DNA of 64,000 nt from Propionibacteriales bacterium (GTDB lineage: Bacteria > Actinomycetota > Actinomycetes > Propionibacteriales > Nocardioidaceae). Position 1 is the first letter of the stretch, and every line of letters starts with the position of its first letter. The stretch spans positions 1 to 64,000 of the forward strand of contig JAPLCB010000006.1 in NCBI GenBank assembly GCA_026392455.1. Direction: 5' to 3'. The notes under the pieces are model-generated. The model was not told the origin of the DNA, searched no databases, and saw only the letters and a program-made list of their open reading frames with translations. This document shows positions 1 through 63,076 of this stretch, piece after piece. Both the position numbers and the translations under genes were made by a program.

Positions 1-1127
1 CAGAGGTTTCCGAGGTTCTCGCTGCTGGTCGGTCCGCCTTGGTCGTAGGGGTGGGTGTGGTCCTTCTGGCAACCCCTCGCGGGTTTGTCGCAGTGCGGGA
101 ACACGCACGTCCGGTCGCGGAGCTCGAGGTGCTCCTTGAGGTTGTCGGGGACGACGTAGCTGGTTGCCGTGACCCGTTCCGCCAGATCGATGACCGGCTT
201 GATGGTGACCTTCACGTCGGGTTGGGCGCACCAGCCGGCGACTTGGGTCTGGGTGAGCAGGTGCCCGCCACCGTTCTCGACCCACGCGGTCGGGTTGGTG
301 GTGTCGGCGGGCAAGTGCACGTAGAGCGTCACCGCCCGGCCGGTCCCCGGAGCGCTGGAGGTTTCGCCGCGGGCCAACCGTCCTAGTGCCATCGCACGCC
401 GAGCGTCCAGAGATGCTTCGCAGCCTTGGTCCTTCAGGACCTGGGCTTCCTGGTCGAGCCTGGCGTCGAGGTCCAGGGCGTCGGCGAGGTCCAGGGCTCC
501 GTAGACGCTGCTGGTGCCCTGGAACGACACCTGTCGGTGGTCGACCACAACCTGGGGCCTGCTGACGTTGTCAGCAAGGTCCTGGACGTAGTCGGGCATC
601 ACCGCGGCGATCGTCTCGTCGATCATCTTCTGGGTGGCTGCAGCGCTGAGCTTCCCGGCCAGAGGCGCGATCCGGGTGTCGAGGTCCAACACGGCGTCCT
701 CGGGGAGGATCGTGGTTTCCCGAGCGATGCGGCGGCCCTTGAACGTCGGGAGCGTCCCGGCCTGGATCCGGGCGTAGACGGCCGGGAGGCGGTGGGCGAG
801 CTCGACGGCATCGGCCAGGTAGGCGCGGCCGCCGTTGGTGGTGGTCCCGATCACGGCGGCGAACTCCGCGACACACCCCCGTCCGATCAGGGGTGCACCC
901 TCGCCGGTCAGGGTGATCGGGGTGTCGCCCCAGGTCTCGGCCAGATCCTCGTCCTCGACCGCGTGCAACGCCGCCCACTCGACGGCGGCAGCGAGCTTGC
1001 GGGCCTCAGCGGCGTGGGCGTCGACCTGCGCGGCGCGGGCTCCGGCGAGCACGGCAGCAGCCGCCAGCGACCGTCGCGGCTTGCGCCGGCGTGCGGTCGG
1101 AGGGAGGTTCAGGTCGTTGTCGAGCAT
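1..1127 (-). CDS. DUF222 / HNH endonuclease family protein (13E12-like), 3' end cut by window edge
   Basis: An uninterrupted frame from ATG at 1127 runs off the left edge, giving about 375 residues. The N-terminal part looks like DUF222: an Ala/Arg-rich helical start, then a block ending in TFKGRRIARETTILP. The last visible residues form an HNH nuclease core, CVFPHCDKPARGCQKDHTHP, with paired Cys and the DHTHP histidines, followed by GGPTSSENLGNL. Such proteins occur as multicopy families in actinobacteria and their role is unsettled (mobile nuclease or housekeeping). It starts about 100 bases from a cluster of short repeats. The call to family is secure; the biological function is not known. 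Confidence 0.88.
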   Translation of the reverse strand, partial: MLDNDLNLPPTARRRKPRRSLAAAAVLAGARAAQVDAHAAEARKLAAAVEWAALHAVEDEDLAETWGDTPITLTGEGAPLIGRGCVAEFAAVIGTTTNGGRAYLADAVELAHRLPAVYARIQAGTLPTFKGRRIARETTILPEDAVLDLDTRIAPLAGKLSAAATQKMIDETIAAVMPDYVQDLADNVSRPQVVVDHRQVSFQGTSSVYGALDLADALDLDARLDQEAQVLKDQGCEASLDARRAMALGRLARGETSSAPGTGRAVTLYVHLPADTTNPTAWVENGGGHLLTQTQVAGWCAQPDVKVTIKPVIDLAERVTATSYVVPDNLKEHLELRDRTCVFPHCDKPARGCQKDHTHPYDQGGPTSSENLGNL

Positions 1128-1227
1128 GGGTCCAACGTTACGGACGACCACCGACAGAAACGGGGCCAGAACACCCCAGATCGTCTCGTAATGCGAGATG
1201 GGTGTCGGATTCTTTTCGGGTGCGGGG

Positions 1228-1334
1228 GTTTCGAGGCTCGCTGCGCTCGCACCTCAACCAGCAGGCGGGGGACGGCGCTGCGCTCGCACCTCAACCAGCA
1301 GTGGGTAGCGAGAGTCCGCGCACCTCAACCAGCA
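1228..1334. repeat. Cluster of three copies of a short CACCTCAACCAGCA repeat
   Basis: The core CACCTCAACCAGCA occurs three times: the longest copy at 1228-1263 (beginning GTTTCGAGGCTCGCTGCGCT), a second at 1275-1300 and a shorter third at 1317-1334. The same element appears at 41095-41130 inside a coding sequence and, as an inverted pair, at 61854-61891. It lies between the start of the DUF222/HNH gene and the 3' end of a secreted-protein gene. The copies become progressively shorter from left to right, as if partially duplicated. Confidence 0.85.
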
Positions 1335-30412: not shown

Positions 30413-31846
30413 ATGACCAGAGCCGTCGTCGTCGGCAGCGGGCCCAACGGTCTGGCTGCCGCGGTCCGGCTGGCCCAGGCCGGCCTCGAGGTGACCGTGC
30501 TCGAAGCTGCCGACGTGGCCGGTGGCGGCACCCGGACCAGCGAGCGGATCGTTCCCGGACTGCTGCACGACGACTGCTCGGCGTTCCACCCGACCGCGAT
30601 CGCCTCGCCGTTCCTCAGCTCCCTGGACCTGGCCGCGCACGGCCTGGTCTGGAAGTGGCCCGAGGTCGACTTCGCGCACCCGCTCGACGACGGCCGGGCC
30701 GGGATCGTGACCCGGAACATGGCCGAGACGGATGCGACCATCGGCGCTGACGCCCGTTCGTGGCACCGGGTCTTCGAGCCGCTGGTCCGGACTTTCGACA
30801 AGATCGTGGTGGATGCCTTCGGCCCGGCTGTGCACCTGCCGCGGCACCCGGTCGCGTTCGGCAGGTTCGGGCCGCAGGCGCTGCTGCCGGCCACCTGGAC
30901 GATGAAGCACTGGAAGGACGACCCGGCGCGAGCCCTGTACATGGGGGTTGCTGCGCACGCCTTCGGCCGGCTCGACACACCCCTGAGCGGTTCGGTCGGG
31001 ATGCTGCTGGGCACCGCTGGTCACGCCGTCGGCTGGCCGGTCGCCGAGGGCGGATCGATCTCGATCGCCCGGGCGCTGACCGGCTTGCTGGAGTCGCTCG
31101 GTGGCACGGTGCGGACCGGGATCCGGGTCACCTCACGGGCCCAGCTCAACGAGGTGCTCGGGTTCGAACCGGAGGTGGTGCTGCTCGACCTGGCTCCGTC
31201 CGCGGTCCTCGACCTGTACGGGGACCTGCTGCCGGGACGCGTCCGCCGGGCGTTCGGCCGCTGGCAGTACGGGCCCGCGGTGCACAAGGTTGACTACGCC
31301 ATCGACGGCGACGTGCCCTGGACCAACGAGGACTGCCGTCGGGCAGGGACCCTGCACCTGGGTGGGACCGCCGAGGAGATCGTCGCGGTGGAGGCAGCGA
31401 CCGCCCGCGGCGAGATGCCCGAGCGTCCGTTCGCACTGATCGGGCAGCAGTACCTGGCCGACCCCACGCGCAGCGCCGGTTCGATCAATCCGCTCTGGGC
31501 CTATGCGCACGTTCCCGCGGGGTACACCGGCTCGTCCGAGGATGCGACCGAGGCGCTGACCGCGCAGATCGAACGGTTCGCACCGGGGTTCCGGGACCGG
31601 ATCGTGGGGACCTACGTCCGGTCGGCGAGCGAGATGGCGGCGTACAACGCGAACTACGTGGGTGGCGACATCGGCGCCGGCGCGAACACGGCCCGGCAGA
31701 TCGTCTTCCGCCCGCGAGCCGGGCTCAACCCCTACAAGCTGGGCATCCCCGGGGTCTACCTCTGCTCCTCGGCCACGGCCCCCGGCGGTGGGGTGCACGG
31801 CATGTCCGGCTTCAACGCCGCCGAGACCGCCCTCAAACACCTCTGA
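30413..31846 (+). CDS. FAD-dependent phytoene dehydrogenase-like (CrtI-type) oxidoreductase
   Basis: About 477 residues from ATG 30413; a GTG two codons earlier is possible. The dinucleotide-binding motif VVGSGPNGLAAAVRLAQAGLEVTVLEAADVAGGGTRT opens the protein. The C-terminal GVYLCSSATAPGGGVHGMSGFNAAETAL is the FAD-binding closure of CrtI/BDR-type desaturases and isomerases. It is probably co-transcribed with the DUF3556 gene. No phytoene synthase or carotenoid cluster is nearby, so a carotenoid role is not supported. The stop codon abuts a repeat island. Confidence 0.87.
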   Translation: MTRAVVVGSGPNGLAAAVRLAQAGLEVTVLEAADVAGGGTRTSERIVPGLLHDDCSAFHPTAIASPFLSSLDLAAHGLVWKWPEVDFAHPLDDGRAGIVTRNMAETDATIGADARSWHRVFEPLVRTFDKIVVDAFGPAVHLPRHPVAFGRFGPQALLPATWTMKHWKDDPARALYMGVAAHAFGRLDTPLSGSVGMLLGTAGHAVGWPVAEGGSISIARALTGLLESLGGTVRTGIRVTSRAQLNEVLGFEPEVVLLDLAPSAVLDLYGDLLPGRVRRAFGRWQYGPAVHKVDYAIDGDVPWTNEDCRRAGTLHLGGTAEEIVAVEAATARGEMPERPFALIGQQYLADPTRSAGSINPLWAYAHVPAGYTGSSEDATEALTAQIERFAPGFRDRIVGTYVRSASEMAAYNANYVGGDIGAGANTARQIVFRPRAGLNPYKLGIPGVYLCSSATAPGGGVHGMSGFNAAETALKHL

Positions 31847-31982
31847 CCGGGCGCAGATGTCCCGCCCAGGTACGCCGACCGGGCGCAGATGTCCCGCCCA
31901 GGTACGCCGACCGGGCGCAGATGTCCCAGCGAAGTGGGACATCTGCGCCCTCTCGGCGTTGTTCGGCGGGACATCTGTGCCC
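31845..31982. repeat. Repeat island of GGGCGCAGATGTCCC units, direct then inverted
   Basis: A 32-bp unit is repeated exactly at 31845-31876 and 31877-31908, with a third partial copy from 31909. The 15-mer GGGCGCAGATGTCCC (31913-31927) is mirrored perfectly at 31936-31950 and nearly at 31968-31982. Layout is three forward, two reverse. It fills the whole gap between convergent stop codons of the CrtI-like gene and the gamma-carbonic anhydrase gene, so it could also end both transcripts. Confidence 0.9.
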
Positions 31983-31990
31983 GCTCGGGG

Positions 31991-32518
31991 TCAGAGCGGG
32001 GTGATCCCGACCAGGTGCCGCTGCGCGAGCTCCTGGTAGTACGGCGGGTTGCCGACGAGCCAGAACTCGGCCATCGACCCCGCCTCGATCGGACGCTTCA
32101 CCTGGGCCGGTGAGCCGGCTGCCAGAACTCCGTCGGGGATCTGGGTACCCGGCGTGAGCAGCGAGCCGGCCGCGATCAAGGACCCGGCACCGATGACGAC
32201 GTCGTCGAGCATGGTGCTGCCGTTGCCGAGCAGCGCGCCTTCACCGACGAGGGCTCCGTGGACCACGCAGCTGTGCGCCACGGTCGCGTTCGCGCCGATC
32301 TCGACCGTGGTCCCGGGGGCGCCGTGCACCACCGAGTTGTCCTGGATGTTGGCGCCCTCGCGGACGATGATCGTGCAGATGTCGGCCCGGAGCACGGCGC
32401 CGTACCAGACGCTGGCGCCCTTCTCGACGGTCACGTCACCGATCAGGGTCGCGGTCGGTGCGACGAAGGCCTCGGGGTGCACGGTCGGGCTCGCACCCTC
32501 GAACTCGAATAGATTCAC
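31991..32518 (-). CDS. Gamma-class carbonic anhydrase family protein
   Basis: 175 residues of left-handed beta-helix hexapeptide repeats. The three zinc histidines fit the family: His65 (VVHGAP), His82 (VAHSC) and His87 (VVHG), with Arg44 and Asp46 (VLRADI). Such trimers hydrate CO2 or act as acyl/transferase-like scaffolds; activity is not guaranteed. No operon partner is evident. The start codon is close to a small open frame in the same direction. Confidence 0.87.
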   Translation of the reverse strand: MNLFEFEGASPTVHPEAFVAPTATLIGDVTVEKGASVWYGAVLRADICTIIVREGANIQDNSVVHGAPGTTVEIGANATVAHSCVVHGALVGEGALLGNGSTMLDDVVIGAGSLIAAGSLLTPGTQIPDGVLAAGSPAQVKRPIEAGSMAEFWLVGNPPYYQELAQRHLVGITPL

Positions 32519-39162: not shown

Positions 39163-40305
39163 ATGACCTTCTACACCGAGGACCGCCTCGCCCTCCAGGC
39201 GAGCGTCCGGACCTTCGTCGAGCGGGAGATCGTGCCGCACCTGCAGGAGTGGGAGGACACCTGCGAGATCCCGCGGTCCCTGCACCAGGTGGCGGCCAAG
39301 GCCGGCATCCTGGCGCTCGGTTTCCCCGAGGAGGCCGGCGGTGAGGGCGGCGATCTGGCCGACATGACAGCCATGCAGGAGGCGTTCTTCGCAGCGGGGG
39401 GTTCCTCGGGCCTGGCCGCCGGGCTCTTCACGCACGGGATCGCGTTGCCGCACATCATCGCCAACGGCAGTGCCGACCTGGTCGACCGCTACGTCCGTCC
39501 GACCCTGGCCGGCGACCTGATCGGGTCGCTGGCCGTCACCGAGCCGGGCGGCGGGTCCGACGTCGCCGGGATCACCACGACCGCGGTCCGTGACGGGGAC
39601 TACTACGTCATCAACGGCGCCAAGACCTTCATCACCTCCGGCGTCCGCGCGGACTTCGTCACCACCGCGGTCCGCACCGGTGGGCCCGGGCACGCCGGCA
39701 TCTCGCTGATCGTCGTGGACAAGGGCACCCCCGGTTTCACCGTCGACCGGTCACTGCAGAAGATGGGCTGGCACTGCTCGGACACCGCCGAGCTCGCGTA
39801 CGTCGACGTCCGGGTGCCCGCGGCCAACCTGGTCGGTGCTGAGAACTCGGGTTTCTACCAGATCGCCGAGCAGTTCGTCGTCGAGCGGATCGGCCTCGCG
39901 GTCCACGGGTACGGCGTCGCCGGGCGCGCTCTCGACCTCACTGCCCAGTACTGCCGGGACCGGGAGACCTTCGGCAAGCCGCTGATCGCCAACCAGGTCG
40001 TCCGGCACAAGCTCGTCGAGATGCGGCGCCTGGTCGAGATCTCGCGCAGCTACACCCACGAGGTGATCGCCCGGCACGTTGCCGGTGAGAACGTGATCGC
40101 CGAGGCGTGCCTGGCCAAGCAGACCGCGGTCGAGGCCTGCGAGGCCGTCGTCGACGCGGCCGTCCAGCTGCACGGCGGCGCCGGGTACATGCACGGAACC
40201 GAGGTCGAGCGGCACTACCGGGACTCCCGGATCCTGCCGATCGGCGGCGGCGCCACCGAAGTCCTCACCGACCTTGCTGCACGACTGTTGGGATACGCAT
40301 CATGA
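39163..40305 (+). CDS. Acyl-CoA dehydrogenase
   Basis: 380 residues. Alpha-helical N-domain, LAVTEPGGGSDVAGITTTA FAD-binding strand, TFITSGVRAD, and C-terminal helices with RDRETFGKPL and QLHGGAGYMHGTEVERHYRDSRI. FAD-dependent oxidation of an acyl-CoA at C2-C3. In medium-chain enzymes the catalytic Glu lies in a YEGT segment; here that site reads GGGATEVL, so the base must be elsewhere, as in isovaleryl-CoA-type enzymes. GAGGAG precedes the ATG. The operon suggests a branched/isoprenoid acyl-CoA substrate. Confidence 0.9.
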   Translation: MTFYTEDRLALQASVRTFVEREIVPHLQEWEDTCEIPRSLHQVAAKAGILALGFPEEAGGEGGDLADMTAMQEAFFAAGGSSGLAAGLFTHGIALPHIIANGSADLVDRYVRPTLAGDLIGSLAVTEPGGGSDVAGITTTAVRDGDYYVINGAKTFITSGVRADFVTTAVRTGGPGHAGISLIVVDKGTPGFTVDRSLQKMGWHCSDTAELAYVDVRVPAANLVGAENSGFYQIAEQFVVERIGLAVHGYGVAGRALDLTAQYCRDRETFGKPLIANQVVRHKLVEMRRLVEISRSYTHEVIARHVAGENVIAEACLAKQTAVEACEAVVDAAVQLHGGAGYMHGTEVERHYRDSRILPIGGGATEVLTDLAARLLGYAS

Positions 40306-41936
40306 CCACTGCTCCGGACGTCGAGCTCGTCGAGCCGCTCTCCCGTCGCGAGTCCATGCTCGCCAAGATCGCGGACCTCGACGCCGAGCACGCCAAGGCC
40401 GTCCTCGGTGGTGGCGAGAAGGCGATCGCCCGGCACCACCAGCGCGACAAGCTGCTCCCGCGGGAGCGGATCGAGCTGCTGATCGACCCCGGTACGGCGT
40501 TCCTGGAGCTGTCTCCGCTGGCCGGCTGGGGATCGGACTTCGCCGTCGGCGCCAGCGTCGTGACCGGCATCGGCGTGATCGAGGGCGTCGAGTGCCTGAT
40601 CACCGCCAACGATCCCACCGTCAAGGGCGGTGCGTCGAACCCGTGGACGCTCAAGAAGGGCTTCCGGGCCTCGCAGATCGCCGAGGAGAACAACCTCCCC
40701 ACGGTGGCGCTGGTCGAGTCCGGTGGTGCTGACCTGCCCACCCAGAAGGACATCTTCATCCCCGGCGGCAAGATGTTCCGCGACATCACCCGGTCGTCGG
40801 CGGCCCGGGTCCCGACGATCGCCCTGGTCTTCGGCAACTCGACCGCGGGTGGCGCCTACATCCCCGGCATGAGCGACTACACCGTGATGGTCAAGGAGAA
40901 GGCGAAGGTCTTCCTCGGCGGCCCGCCGCTGGTGAAGATGGCCACCGGTGAGGAGTCCGACGACGAGTCGCTCGGTGGCGCCGAGATGCACGCGCGCACC
41001 TCGGGCCTCGCCGACTACCTCGCGGTCGACGAGTACGACGCGATCCGGATCGGTCGGCGGATCGTCGGTCGGTTGAACCAGCAGAAGAAGGGCGGTTTCG
41101 AGGCTCGCTCCGCTCGCACCTCAACCAGCACGGTCGCCTTCGCGGAGCCGGAGCACGACCCCGAGGAGCTGCTCGACCTGATCCCGACCGATCTGAAGGA
41201 ACCCTTCGACCCGCGCGAGGTGATCGCTCGGATCGCGGACGGTCGCAGTGCGACCAACGGTGCCGTGTTCGACGAGTTCAAGCCGCTCTACGGCAACTCG
41301 TTGGTCACCGGGTGGGCGAAGATCCACGGCCAGCAGGTCGGCATCCTGGCCAACGCCCAAGGGGTGCTCTTCTCCGAGGAGGCCCAGAAGGCGACCCAGT
41401 TCATCCAGCTCGCCAACCAGATCGACGTACCGCTGCTCTTCCTGCAGAACACCACCGGCTACATGGTCGGCGCGGAGTACGAGCAGGGCGGGATCATCAA
41501 GCACGGGGCCCAGATGATCAACGCGGTCAGCAACTCCAAGGTCCCGCACATCACCGTGGTGATGGCGGCGTCGTACGGCGCCGGCAACTACGGCATGAAC
41601 GGGCGCGCGTTCGACCCGCGGTTCCTGTTCACCTGGCCGAGCTCGAAGTCAGCCGTGATGGGCCCGGCCCAGCTGGCCGGGGTGCTGGAGATCGTCGCCA
41701 AGCAGTCGGCCGAGTCCAAGGGACAGGTCTTCGACGCGGAGGGCTTCGGCGCTGTCAAGGCGATGGTCGAAGCGCAGATCGAGGAGCAGTCGATGCCGTA
41801 CTTCCTGTCGGGGATGGTCTACGACGACGGCGTCATCGACCCGCGGGACACCCGCACCGTCCTGGGCATCTGCCTGTCCGTGATCAACAACCGCCCCGTC
41901 GAGGGCACGGACCGCTTCGGCGTCTTCCGGATGTGA
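40302..41936 (+). CDS. Acyl-CoA carboxylase beta (carboxyltransferase) subunit
   Basis: 544 residues with N- and C-terminal crotonase-fold carboxyltransferase domains: GIGVIEGVECLITANDPTVKGG, VFGNSTAGGAYIPGMSDYTVMV (acyl-CoA loop), and FLQNTTGYMVGAEYEQGGIIKHGAQMINAV with AASYGAGNYGMNGRAFDPRFLF. The type resembles geranyl-CoA/methylcrotonyl-CoA carboxylase beta (AtuC/LiuB). Residues 265-276 are encoded by a 36-bp copy of the intergenic repeat and are an extra 12-residue insert (GFEARSARTSTS) in the inter-domain linker. ATG overlaps the preceding stop (ATGA). Confidence 0.92.
   Translation: MTTAPDVELVEPLSRRESMLAKIADLDAEHAKAVLGGGEKAIARHHQRDKLLPRERIELLIDPGTAFLELSPLAGWGSDFAVGASVVTGIGVIEGVECLITANDPTVKGGASNPWTLKKGFRASQIAEENNLPTVALVESGGADLPTQKDIFIPGGKMFRDITRSSAARVPTIALVFGNSTAGGAYIPGMSDYTVMVKEKAKVFLGGPPLVKMATGEESDDESLGGAEMHARTSGLADYLAVDEYDAIRIGRRIVGRLNQQKKGGFEARSARTSTSTVAFAEPEHDPEELLDLIPTDLKEPFDPREVIARIADGRSATNGAVFDEFKPLYGNSLVTGWAKIHGQQVGILANAQGVLFSEEAQKATQFIQLANQIDVPLLFLQNTTGYMVGAEYEQGGIIKHGAQMINAVSNSKVPHITVVMAASYGAGNYGMNGRAFDPRFLFTWPSSKSAVMGPAQLAGVLEIVAKQSAESKGQVFDAEGFGAVKAMVEAQIEEQSMPYFLSGMVYDDGVIDPRDTRTVLGICLSVINNRPVEGTDRFGVFRM
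41095..41130 (+). repeat. Repeat copy inserted in frame in the carboxylase beta gene
   Basis: 36 bases from GTTTCG through CACCTCAACCAGCA match the element at 1228-1263 in all but one base (GCTCC versus GCTGC). Its length is a multiple of three and it leaves the frame open, giving residues 265-276. The position is the linker between the two carboxyltransferase domains. Confidence 0.93.
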
Positions 41937-61849: not shown

Positions 61850-61853
61850 CCCA

Positions 61854-61891
61854 GCTGGTTGAGGTGTGGCCGCGCTCGCACCTCAACCAGC
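61854..61891. repeat. Inverted pair of the short repeat forming a hairpin
   Basis: GCTGGTTGAGGTG (61854-61866) is perfectly mirrored by CACCTCAACCAGC (61879-61891). The right arm is the same word found at 1250-1334 and 41117-41130. It separates the convergent TetR and sulfotransferase genes and supplies the sulfotransferase stop codon. It may terminate both. Confidence 0.88.
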
Positions 61892-63076
61892 ATCGGGACG
61901 GAACCGAGCCTCGTACGCGGCGAACCGCTCCTTGATCTGGCCGGCAGTCAGGCCGTAGGTCTCGGGCTGGTAGTCGGGACGTCCGGTCTCCCGGGGTCGG
62001 CGGGCCAGCCAGTCGCGCATCGAGCTCTCCGCCGCCGCCACCAGGTCCACGCCGATCGCGTCGTACACCCGCGCGACCGAGCCGATCGGCTCGCGGACGG
62101 CGTCCTCGAAGGCGACGTCGGTGACCAGGCCCGGGTCCGTCCGCGCCCACGCCGCCCGGGTCGCCAGGGCCCGGTCGTTGGTCCACCCCATCCGCCCGAT
62201 CCACTCGGACCCGACCCGGTGCAGGTCGACGTGGTCGGAGTGCATGCCGTGCAGGACCGCGTTCAGACTGGCGCCGGAGCCGATCGACTCGACCGGGTCG
62301 CGGTGCAGGTGCACCACGTGCAGGTCGGGGAACTGCGCCCGCAGGGTGTCCAGGTAGCCGAGGTGGGCGGGCGTCTTGAGTACCCAGCGACCGATCTCCT
62401 CGCCGCGTTGCCGTTTCTGCCACTGCAGCAGCTGGAGCATCTCGTGCAGGTGCCCGTACGCCGGAGCGAAGTCGGCCTGGTCGAGGAACTGCCGGTACGC
62501 CGGCAGGTGCGCCCCCGACTCCGGCACGTGCGAGAGGAAGGCGGCGTCCAGGAAGACGATCTCCTCCTCGGCCTCGAGCACGTACATCGGGTGGATCGCG
62601 AACAGGTCGGGCATGAACTGCCTCGTCTGCTCCTGGCGGGTCAGCGCCGAGGCGATCCGCGGGTCATCCTCGGCGCTCGGTCCCTGGGAGAACGTGAAGT
62701 CCAGTCGCGGCGCCGGGCTGATCACCTCCCACCCGTGGGCGCAGGTGAACCGTCGGTCCGCGGCGAGCAGCCGCTGCATCAGCGTGGTACCGCTGCGCAT
62801 CATGCCGACCACCACGACCGGGGCCTGGATGACCTCGTCGGCGATCTCGGGGAACCGTCGCCGCCACTCGGTCGCGCGCAACCGCATCCGCAGGTGGTGC
62901 ACCAGCCCGGCGCGGATGATGTGCGCCCCCATCTCGGAGAGGTCCGCGCCGAGGTAGTCCTCGGCGAGCACCCCGAGCGGCTCGGTGAAGGACCAGGGTC
63001 CGAAGTCGTCGAGCGACTCCTTGGTCCGTGCGGCCTCGATCAGGGCAGTTGGCGAGAAGTCCGTACGCAGGTCCAC
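61883..63076 (-). CDS. Sulfotransferase family protein
   Basis: 397 residues. The PAPS 5'-phosphosulfate-binding loop is VVVGMMRSGTTLMQRLL (91-98 core GMMRSGTT), and HLHRDPVESIGSGASL is the 3'-phosphate-binding region. Transfers sulfate from PAPS to an alcohol, likely a lipid or sterol-like acceptor. The final codons read PDAG then TGA, where GCTGGTTGA is the reverse complement of the repeat, so the C-terminus is set by the element. Divergent from an NTF2-like gene. Confidence 0.88.
   Translation of the reverse strand: MDLRTDFSPTALIEAARTKESLDDFGPWSFTEPLGVLAEDYLGADLSEMGAHIIRAGLVHHLRMRLRATEWRRRFPEIADEVIQAPVVVVGMMRSGTTLMQRLLAADRRFTCAHGWEVISPAPRLDFTFSQGPSAEDDPRIASALTRQEQTRQFMPDLFAIHPMYVLEAEEEIVFLDAAFLSHVPESGAHLPAYRQFLDQADFAPAYGHLHEMLQLLQWQKRQRGEEIGRWVLKTPAHLGYLDTLRAQFPDLHVVHLHRDPVESIGSGASLNAVLHGMHSDHVDLHRVGSEWIGRMGWTNDRALATRAAWARTDPGLVTDVAFEDAVREPIGSVARVYDAIGVDLVAAAESSMRDWLARRPRETGRPDYQPETYGLTAGQIKERFAAYEARFRPDAG

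What the first reader, a model, noticed from the sequence alone, without database searches (positions are those of the whole stretch)
1..1334. DUF222/HNH gene beside a cluster of the mobile-looking repeat
The densest cluster of this repeat (three copies) sits about 100 bases from the start of a DUF222/HNH gene. Multicopy HNH proteins and short palindromic repeats recall the pairing of REP elements with REP-associated transposases, where the protein mobilises the repeats. A possible HNH-driven dispersal system is speculative but testable.
Basis: inference. Interest (0 to 1): 0.65.

Follow-up and report, generated by a model that had tools for sequence, protein, structure and literature searches.

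The report
Palindromic repeats tied to HNH genes
In some actinobacteria, a family of short hairpin repeats scattered around the genome sits again and again right in front of copies of one nuclease-type gene with a DNA-damage-type promoter, which suggests (but does not prove) that this nuclease spreads the repeats.

Summary
In detail: one full and two half repeats lie about 100 bp before the ATG of a DUF222/HNH gene that runs off the contig. In this genome (G000), 6 of 7 five-prime and 5 of 6 three-prime ends of near-identical gene copies carry the repeat in inverted arrangement. By the exact 13-mer, 10 of 13 ends lie within 500 bp of it; background 1.4%. The eight diverged DUF222 loci have none within 4.8 kb. 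Five other genomes show an upstream excess, 11.5-fold over more distant DNA, in distant DUF222 subfamilies with their own repeat variants. The repeat is a REP with fixed ends and a varying, compensating inner hairpin. At 10 of 10 alignable sites sister genome G015 lacks it, so REPs probably moved recently. No Y1/RAYT transposase was found in 11 genomes. The genes carry a published DNA-damage promoter motif. Against a strict pairing: copy numbers do not correlate (rho 0.17), and several genomes amplify DUF222 without this REP. Best reading: a REP-RAYT-like pairing with an HNH protein; action on the repeat is untested.

The parts
1..1127 (-). DUF222/HNH gene, 5' part; runs off the contig end. 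Near-identical 5' parts stop at six other contig ends
1135..1156 (-). DNA-damage type promoter motif TGTCGGTG-N8-TAACGT, 7 bp before the ATG
   Evidence: consensus tTGTCRgtg-8nt-TannnT read in a passage of PMC5656591
1184..1198 (.). short palindrome TCTCGTAATGCGAGA between promoter and REP, found in the six REP-linked 5' copies of G000 (one with a base change)
1227..1263 (+). complete REP, GGTTTCGAGG...CACCTCAACC plus conserved AGCA tag
1276..1300 (+). half REP (3' half with AGCA tag)
1316..1334 (+). half REP, more degenerate (2 mismatches)
41094..41130 (+). complete REP lying in frame inside an acyl-CoA carboxylase beta-subunit-like gene (40302-41936)
   Evidence: carboxyl transferase PF01039
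61853..61892 (+). double-ended REP palindrome between a TetR-like gene (+, ends 61849) and a sulfotransferase-like gene (-, ends 61883)
   Evidence: the two gene names are read from the translations, not from a family search

Best explanation
The 36-mer is a REP: a short hairpin repeat with fixed ends (GGTTTCGA...CTCAACC plus a 3-4 base tag), a two-base bulge (TC) and a free inner stem. It belongs with certain subfamilies of DUF222-HNH genes. The unit is REP (or REP array) - short leader - DNA-damage promoter - DUF222-HNH gene - stop; in G000 it also has inverted REPs right after the stop. I propose that the nuclease, made after DNA damage, recognises REP hairpins or their tag and nicks or cuts there, and that repair copies REPs, and at times the whole unit, to new places. 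In logic this resembles REP and RAYT, with an unrelated enzyme, and may be gene-conversion-like rather than cut-and-paste. Shown here: the association, its placement and (mostly) its orientation, its recurrence in distant subfamilies, REP presence/absence against a sister genome, the promoter motif, and no match to Y1 transposases in 11 genomes. Inferred: that the nuclease acts on the REP, the copying route, and induction by damage.
For: G000: 6 of 7 five-prime flanks and 5 of 6 three-prime flanks (4 of 6 with the exact 13-mer) carry the REP in inverted arrangement. 10 of 13 ends lie within 500 bp of a 13-mer cluster, background 1.4%. With 15 clusters per 200 kb taken as 7.5% of gene gaps (one gene per kb assumed), 6 of 7 has a tail of 1.2e-6. 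The eight diverged G000 DUF222 loci lie 4.8-99 kb from the nearest 13-mer. Among 35 G000 REP clusters compared (looser core; all contig-end clusters I held plus 25 others), DUF222-HNH recurs at 10 and no other family at more than a few. Other genomes, REP within 1 kb upstream of the DUF222 match: G008 10 of 14, G253 9 of 13, G165 19 of 20, G110 5 of 15, G286 4 of 9, G021 1 of 2. The nearest REP has the G000 orientation in 39 of those 48 (G110 only 2 of 5). REP density in five genomes: 120 in 67.7 kb upstream against 22 in 145.8 kb further away. Nocardioides halotolerans L066 shows the same layout. In a tree of 103 DUF222 proteins the label 'REP upstream' needs 13 changes, 11 forced (gains or losses), and is scattered over distant subfamilies. 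REP inner stems compensate (G253 pairs 14-25 and 15-24). G000-type REPs are absent from G015 at 10 of 10 alignable sites (the single 13-mer of G015 lies on another contig). Y1_Tnp found in 0 of 11 genomes. Promoter core in 66 of 103 upstream regions, strict form in 25; background 0.023 core and 0 strict per 450 bp. Published: REP13E12 loci, written as 'REP13E12/HNH endonuclease/DUF222' in PMC10589994, rank among the most gene-converted loci of M. tuberculosis (PMC13061034, passages), which fits a nuclease that provokes copying.
Against: DUF222 genes amplify without this REP upstream in G007 (0 of 7 loci; one REP inside a gene), G020 (0 of 6), G033 (0 of 5) and G006 (0 of 3). REP-linked genes are not clearly more recent duplicates than unlinked ones (46 against 24, p 0.19). 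Copy numbers do not correlate. G428 has 49 generic REPs and one DUF222 match, with a REP inside the gene but none upstream. One near-identical G000 five-prime half (C6 start) and one three-prime half (C9 start) lack REPs. Three-prime REPs are uncommon outside G000 (12 of 73 loci), so REPs are not general terminal repeats. Orientation is mixed in G110 and G165. Paralogues are not independent, so within-genome p-values overstate the case, and the genomes were partly chosen for being REP-rich. The unlinked genes share the promoter, so it says nothing about REPs. The structure prediction failed (pLDDT 39).
Confidence: 0.5

Rival explanations
1. Hitch-hiking: DUF222-HNH units spread by their own route (for instance gene conversion or homing), REPs are moved by some other host process, and REPs that once landed upstream are simply copied along with the gene.
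For: Amplified DUF222 clades without REPs upstream (G007, G020, G033). Sharp homology borders next to promoter and stop in the REP-less C6/C9 halves, and at the stop in the six G253 loci printed.
Against: Linkage recurs in distant subfamilies, with differing REP variants. Two separate DUF222 clades within G165 are both linked. DUF222-HNH is the only gene family found at many of the 35 REP clusters compared. No other mobiliser was found, though only Y1_Tnp was searched.
Confidence: 0.22
2. Regulation: the REP array is a binding or insulating site that controls the DUF222-HNH gene, for example autoregulation or a terminator against read-through, and is kept there by selection rather than placed by the enzyme.
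For: Placement just upstream of the promoter and mostly constant orientation (39 of 48). REP between convergent genes at 61853.
Against: 25 of the 35 G000 REP clusters compared are not beside DUF222. Array length varies from 1 to 7 within 2 kb between copies. Unlinked DUF222 genes keep the same promoter without REP.
Confidence: 0.15
3. Tolerated landing sites: REPs moved by an unknown agent pile up next to young, dispensable genes such as DUF222 copies because nothing selects against them there.
For: REPs also enter a variable protein loop and a gap between convergent genes.
Against: Upstream bias over downstream (48 of 73 loci within 1 kb upstream of the match; 12 of 73 within 600 bp after the stop; the two windows differ in size) and orientation bias. 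Diverged DUF222 copies in G000 have none.
Confidence: 0.1

Closest known systems
REP elements with RAYT (REP-associated tyrosine transposases), PMC2817692 (part of the abstract and passages)
   Same: Short imperfect palindromes with a short conserved tag on one side, dispersed and clustered in arrays, lying next to a gene of nuclease type; several REP variants with preserved pairing; in G000 inverted REPs on both sides of the gene.
   Different: The enzyme is DUF222-HNH; no Y1/HUH match in 11 genomes. The tag is AGCA or ACC, not GT(A/G)G. Outside G000 the REPs lie mostly on the 5' side. The gene is multicopy.
REP13E12 / 13E12 repeat family of mycobacteria (DUF222/HNH)
   Same: Multicopy DUF222/HNH genes; listed as repetitive elements (PMC10589994, passages) and as gene-conversion hot spots (PMC13061034, a preprint, passages).
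   Different: No link to short palindromic repeats appears in the passages read. Genus g26 of the class sample, which I take for mycobacteria (names are not given), has only 0-2 matches of the GGTTTCGA...CTCAACC pattern per genome.
HNH homing endonucleases
   Same: HNH nuclease gene that spreads to many places; gene-conversion-like borders (C6/C9 halves).
   Different: The proposed target is a dispersed hairpin, not one unique site. Recalled comparison, not tested.
MITE / insertion sequence pairs
   Same: Short elements without a gene beside longer units with a gene that share end sequences (G000).
   Different: In G253 and G008 mainly the 5' end bears the repeat; no target duplication could be established; transposase families other than Y1 were not searched. 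Recalled comparison.

Membership tests
RAYT-REP system | gene encodes a Y1 (IS200/IS605-like) tyrosine transposase | tested here: not met
   PF01797 0 of 11 genomes including G000 and G008; controls ring in 5 of 14
[quoted passage not shown]
   G000: 6 of 7 five-prime and 5 of 6 three-prime flanks, but no single copy could be read through; elsewhere mostly 5' only: 12 of 73 loci in the six REP-linked genomes have a REP within 600 bp downstream
RAYT-REP system | REP with GT(A/G)G head | tested here: not met
   conserved tag is AGCA in 45 of 54 distinct G000 contexts, ACC-type in G008, G110, G253, G286
REP elements in general | short palindrome, tens to hundreds of copies, clustered, mostly between genes | tested here: met
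   87 13-mers in 49 clusters in G000; 161 in G008; hairpins; location was checked only for the window copies and some neighbours, one copy being in frame inside a gene
DUF222 (PF02720) | profile score over the curated cut-off | tested here: met
   40.1 bits against 24.4 in the genome search; but not returned by default hmmscan
HNH endonuclease (PF01844) | HNH domain over the curated cut-off | tested here: met
   23.1 bits against 21.4 in the intact C6 copy; the truncated window protein reaches 15.1
Classical insertion sequence | terminal inverted repeats and target-site duplication | tested here: inconclusive
   inverted REPs at both sides in G000; contig breaks prevent pairing the two sides of one copy
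LexA-independent (PafBC/ClgR-type) DNA-damage regulon | promoter tTGTCRgtg-8nt-TannnT | tested here: met
   strict form (without the first t) in 7 of 7 near-identical G000 copies; 25 of 103 loci strict and 66 of 103 core elsewhere; expression not testable here

The most novel reading that the evidence does not exclude
DUF222-HNH (13E12-type) proteins are a large, previously unrecognised class of DNA-damage-induced enzymes that disperse hairpin repeats and copies of their own genes by a nuclease-driven copying route unrelated to known transposases. Each subfamily would recognise its own variant of a shared REP superfamily, GGTTTCGA...CTCAACC.
Probability: 0.35. Interest if true: 0.88.

Novelty: new variant of a known kind. 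Interest (0 to 1): 0.74.

Why it matters
REPs are common, but as far as I recall their mobiliser is known only for the RAYT type. A second, unrelated gene partner would show that REP-plus-enzyme pairing arose more than once. It would also give the multicopy DUF222/HNH genes of actinobacteria a testable role (a 2026 preprint, PMC13061034, says the M. tuberculosis REP13E12 regions 'lack defined biological function'), and tie their activity to DNA damage.

Tried and rejected
General terminal inverted repeats: attractive from G000 alone, rejected as a general rule because G253 and G008 have REPs mainly on the 5' side.

Homing into pre-existing REP clusters only: not general, because the G253 units printed end at the stop codon with unrelated DNA and no REP beyond (0 of 13 downstream). 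It remains possible for G000 and G165. The site next to mscL at the C8 end (gene name recalled from the translation) holds short REPs in G019 and G016, none seen by eye in G008, G021 and G015, and REPs plus the gene in G000; this does not decide it.

Recent-duplicate test: REP-linked genes were expected to have closer paralogues; not significant (46 against 24, p 0.19).

Copy-number correlation: not significant. The class-wide DUF222 counts could not be used because at most about 5 candidates per genome were scored.

Named-genome scan with the window protein gave a single locus, N. halotolerans. Plasmids: 1 record (Georgenia, 33% identity); phages: none. Rfam: nothing in the window. NCBIfam: only sub-threshold matches. 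Structure prediction with a two-row alignment failed (pLDDT 39.3), so no fold search was run. A regular expression for HNH residues was too strict for some subfamilies and its counts are not used. A first regular expression for the carboxylase loop found nothing and was corrected.

Conserved hairpin next to the promoter: differs by lineage and is not found in many loci; noted only.

Literature: 10 searches. None of the listed titles or abstract starts reports a link between DUF222/HNH genes and short palindromic repeats in actinobacteria; this covers only that library and only listings. Passages were read in PMC10589994, PMC2817692, PMC13061034 and PMC5656591; a term search in PMC3733652 returned no passage. 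No paper was read in full.

Full report
OBSERVATION. The window starts at the first base of contig C11 of a 3.55-Mb, 11-contig genome, G000. A minus-strand gene starts with ATG at 1127 and runs off the contig. Two more copies lie at 41094-41130 and 61853-61892. The 13-mer core occurs 87 times in G000, the reversed control 0 times, in 49 clusters.

THE GENE IS MULTICOPY AND BREAKS THE ASSEMBLY. I read 21 of the 22 contig ends (the end of C7 was not taken). Seven stop inside the 5' part and six inside the 3' part of near-identical copies of this gene. Six of the seven 5' flanks carry one to several REPs in the same place and orientation, ending about 100 bp before the ATG. Five of the six 3' flanks carry a REP just after the stop, pointing the other way. 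The exceptions are the C6 start (5' half) and the C9 start (3' half), where homology to the other copies stops next to the promoter and the stop codon. With the exact 13-mer, 10 of 13 ends (6 of 7 and 4 of 6) lie within 500 bp of a cluster; a random position has 1.4%. The copies are duplicates of each other, so the binomial value (8e-17) overstates the case. The eight diverged DUF222 loci in G000 lie 4.8 to 99 kb from the nearest 13-mer, and no generic REP lies within 1 kb upstream of any of the 9 internal loci tested. The internal copy on C6 (87% identical in protein) has a diverged palindrome of the same outline in the same place, seen by eye. I compared 35 REP clusters of G000 with each other after masking REPs (looser core than the 13-mer; all contig-end clusters that I held plus 25 others). 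DUF222-HNH recurs at 10. Of the others, the most connected locus resembles four others.

OTHER GENOMES. A generic pattern GGTTTCGA-N(4-34)-CTCAACC was counted in 393 genomes of the class. 116 have at least one match, and 25 have at least five, by my count from the listing. All 25 have DUF222, against 268 of 393 overall (Fisher p 7e-5, not corrected for ancestry). I fetched 100 DUF222 loci from 13 other genomes, chosen by their DUF222 match and not by repeats, though several genomes were chosen for having REPs: G008 14 of 30 matches, G020 6 of 24, G007 7 of 17, G033 5 of 9, G006 3 of 12, G019 3 of 3, G021 2 of 8 (matches as), G110 15 of 15, G286 9 of 9, G253 13 of 13, G428 1 of 1, G334 2 of 7, G165 20 of 28 (matches as; fetched). 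No DUF222 loci of G193, G168, G213 or G028 were fetched, though these have REPs. A REP lies within 1 kb upstream in G008 10, G253 9, G165 19, G110 5, G286 4 and G021 1 of these loci, and in none of G020, G007, G033, G006, G019, G334 and G428 (pattern with GGTYTCGA and CTCRACC). The nearest upstream REP has the G000 orientation in 39 of 48 (all in G008, G253, G286, G021; 13 of 19 in G165; 2 of 5 in G110). In the five genomes with the most links, density is 120 REPs in 67.7 kb upstream against 22 in 145.8 kb further away, 11.5-fold. Counting REP copies per gene gap as an upper bound for chance (one gene per kb assumed), the tails run from 2e-5 to 1e-20 per genome. Nocardioides halotolerans, the one named genome found, has two REPs upstream of its DUF222 gene in the same orientation.

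THE LINK IS OLD OR RECURRENT. A tree of 103 DUF222 proteins (101 of the 109 loci held, the rest dropped as short or N-containing, plus one G000 contig-end copy and N. halotolerans) needs 13 changes of the label 'REP upstream', 11 of them forced, against 34 for shuffled labels (quick method, long branches flagged; gains and losses are not told apart). Linked genes lie in distant subfamilies: two clades within G165, two within G286, and separately G253 and G110, G008, G000, G021 and N. halotolerans. Several amplified clades have no REP of this type upstream (G007, G020, G033), so DUF222 amplification does not need it.

THE REPEAT. The outer part GGTT-TC-GAG...CTC-AACC is fixed. The inner stem varies with compensating changes within one genome: in G253, 6 distinct forms of one length, G-C/T-A at pair 14-25 and C-G/T-A at 15-24; in G165 several different stems. 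For G000 and G008 the folding program prefers other pairings, so the drawing is an interpretation there. The element ends in a short tag: AGCA follows in 45 of 54 distinct G000 contexts, ACC-type in G008, G110, G253 and G286.

RECENT MOVEMENT. G015 is the nearest of the 58 relatives by the carboxylase gene (93% protein identity). In a 200-kb stretch that is largely collinear, 15 G000 clusters were seen. Twelve were tried and ten could be placed by both flanks; none of the ten shows a G000-type REP in G015, whose single exact 13-mer lies on another contig. By eye, six are clean gaps, one is complex, and at three G015 has a palindrome of its own (GTCTCGACAGGCTCGAC). The REP at 41094 lies in frame in a carboxylase gene, in a variable loop where several relatives carry other palindromes. 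Absence in G015 could in principle be loss; the clean gaps make gain likelier.

PROMOTER. Just before the ATG lies TGTCGGTG-N8-TAACGT, which fits the published LexA-independent DNA-damage consensus (PMC5656591, passages read). All seven near-identical 5' halves have it. Among 103 other upstream regions (6 of 109, all G008, dropped for N runs) 25 have the strict and 66 the core form, against 0 and 0.023 expected per 450 bp. REP-linked and unlinked genes share it.

NO RAYT. Y1_Tnp (PF01797) was found in 0 of 11 genomes; the same search rings in 5 of 14 control genomes. Other transposase families were not searched.

MECHANISM. The simplest account is that the HNH protein of a linked subfamily acts on its REP and that repair spreads REPs and, at times, the unit. 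The passages read of the preprint PMC13061034 say REP13E12 loci of M. tuberculosis are among the most gene-converted loci (87 events), which fits. The step 'enzyme acts on REP' is inference. Rivals and their weights are given in their sections; hitch-hiking is the strongest.

RESULTS AGAINST. Copy numbers: rho 0.17 (58 genomes), 0.39 (24 same-genus genomes), neither significant. Linked and unlinked genes do not differ in closest-paralogue identity (p 0.19). G428 has 49 REPs and one DUF222 match without a REP upstream. REPs on both sides are regular only in G000. Orientation is mixed in G110 and G165. The structure model is unusable.

VERDICT.

Noticed in passing
41094-41130; L197-L219: The same variable loop of the acyl-CoA carboxylase gene carries different palindromic inserts in different relatives (for example GTCATACG...CGTATGAC-like ones in G006, G011, G017; short GGTTTCGACAGGCTCAACC in G001). 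A permissive protein loop seems to collect each genome's own repeats.
   Followed up: partly
31845-31991; also start of contig C4 (L052): A second palindromic repeat family (GGGCGCAGATGTCCC), tandem and inverted in the window, also at a contig end of G000; not found in 200 kb of C4 or of G015.
   Followed up: partly
1184-1198 and upstream of the promoter in L097-L196: Small palindromes differing by lineage lie 20-60 bp upstream of the DNA-damage promoter of a number of DUF222 genes; possible operator.
   Followed up: partly
L056 (C6 start) and L062 (C9 start): Two near-identical gene halves without REPs, with homology ending next to the promoter and the stop codon, as a gene-conversion tract would.
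   Followed up: no
L077, L101, L103 (G008): Short REPs appear to be read in frame inside DUF222 genes themselves, as GSTT-type peptides.
   Followed up: no
L237-L246 (G015): At three collinear sites with a REP cluster in G000, G015 has its own palindrome instead: same spots, species-specific repeats.
   Followed up: partly
P0001: The DUF222 profile scores 40.1 bits in the genome search but is not returned by default hmmscan; annotation pipelines may miss this subfamily.
   Followed up: no
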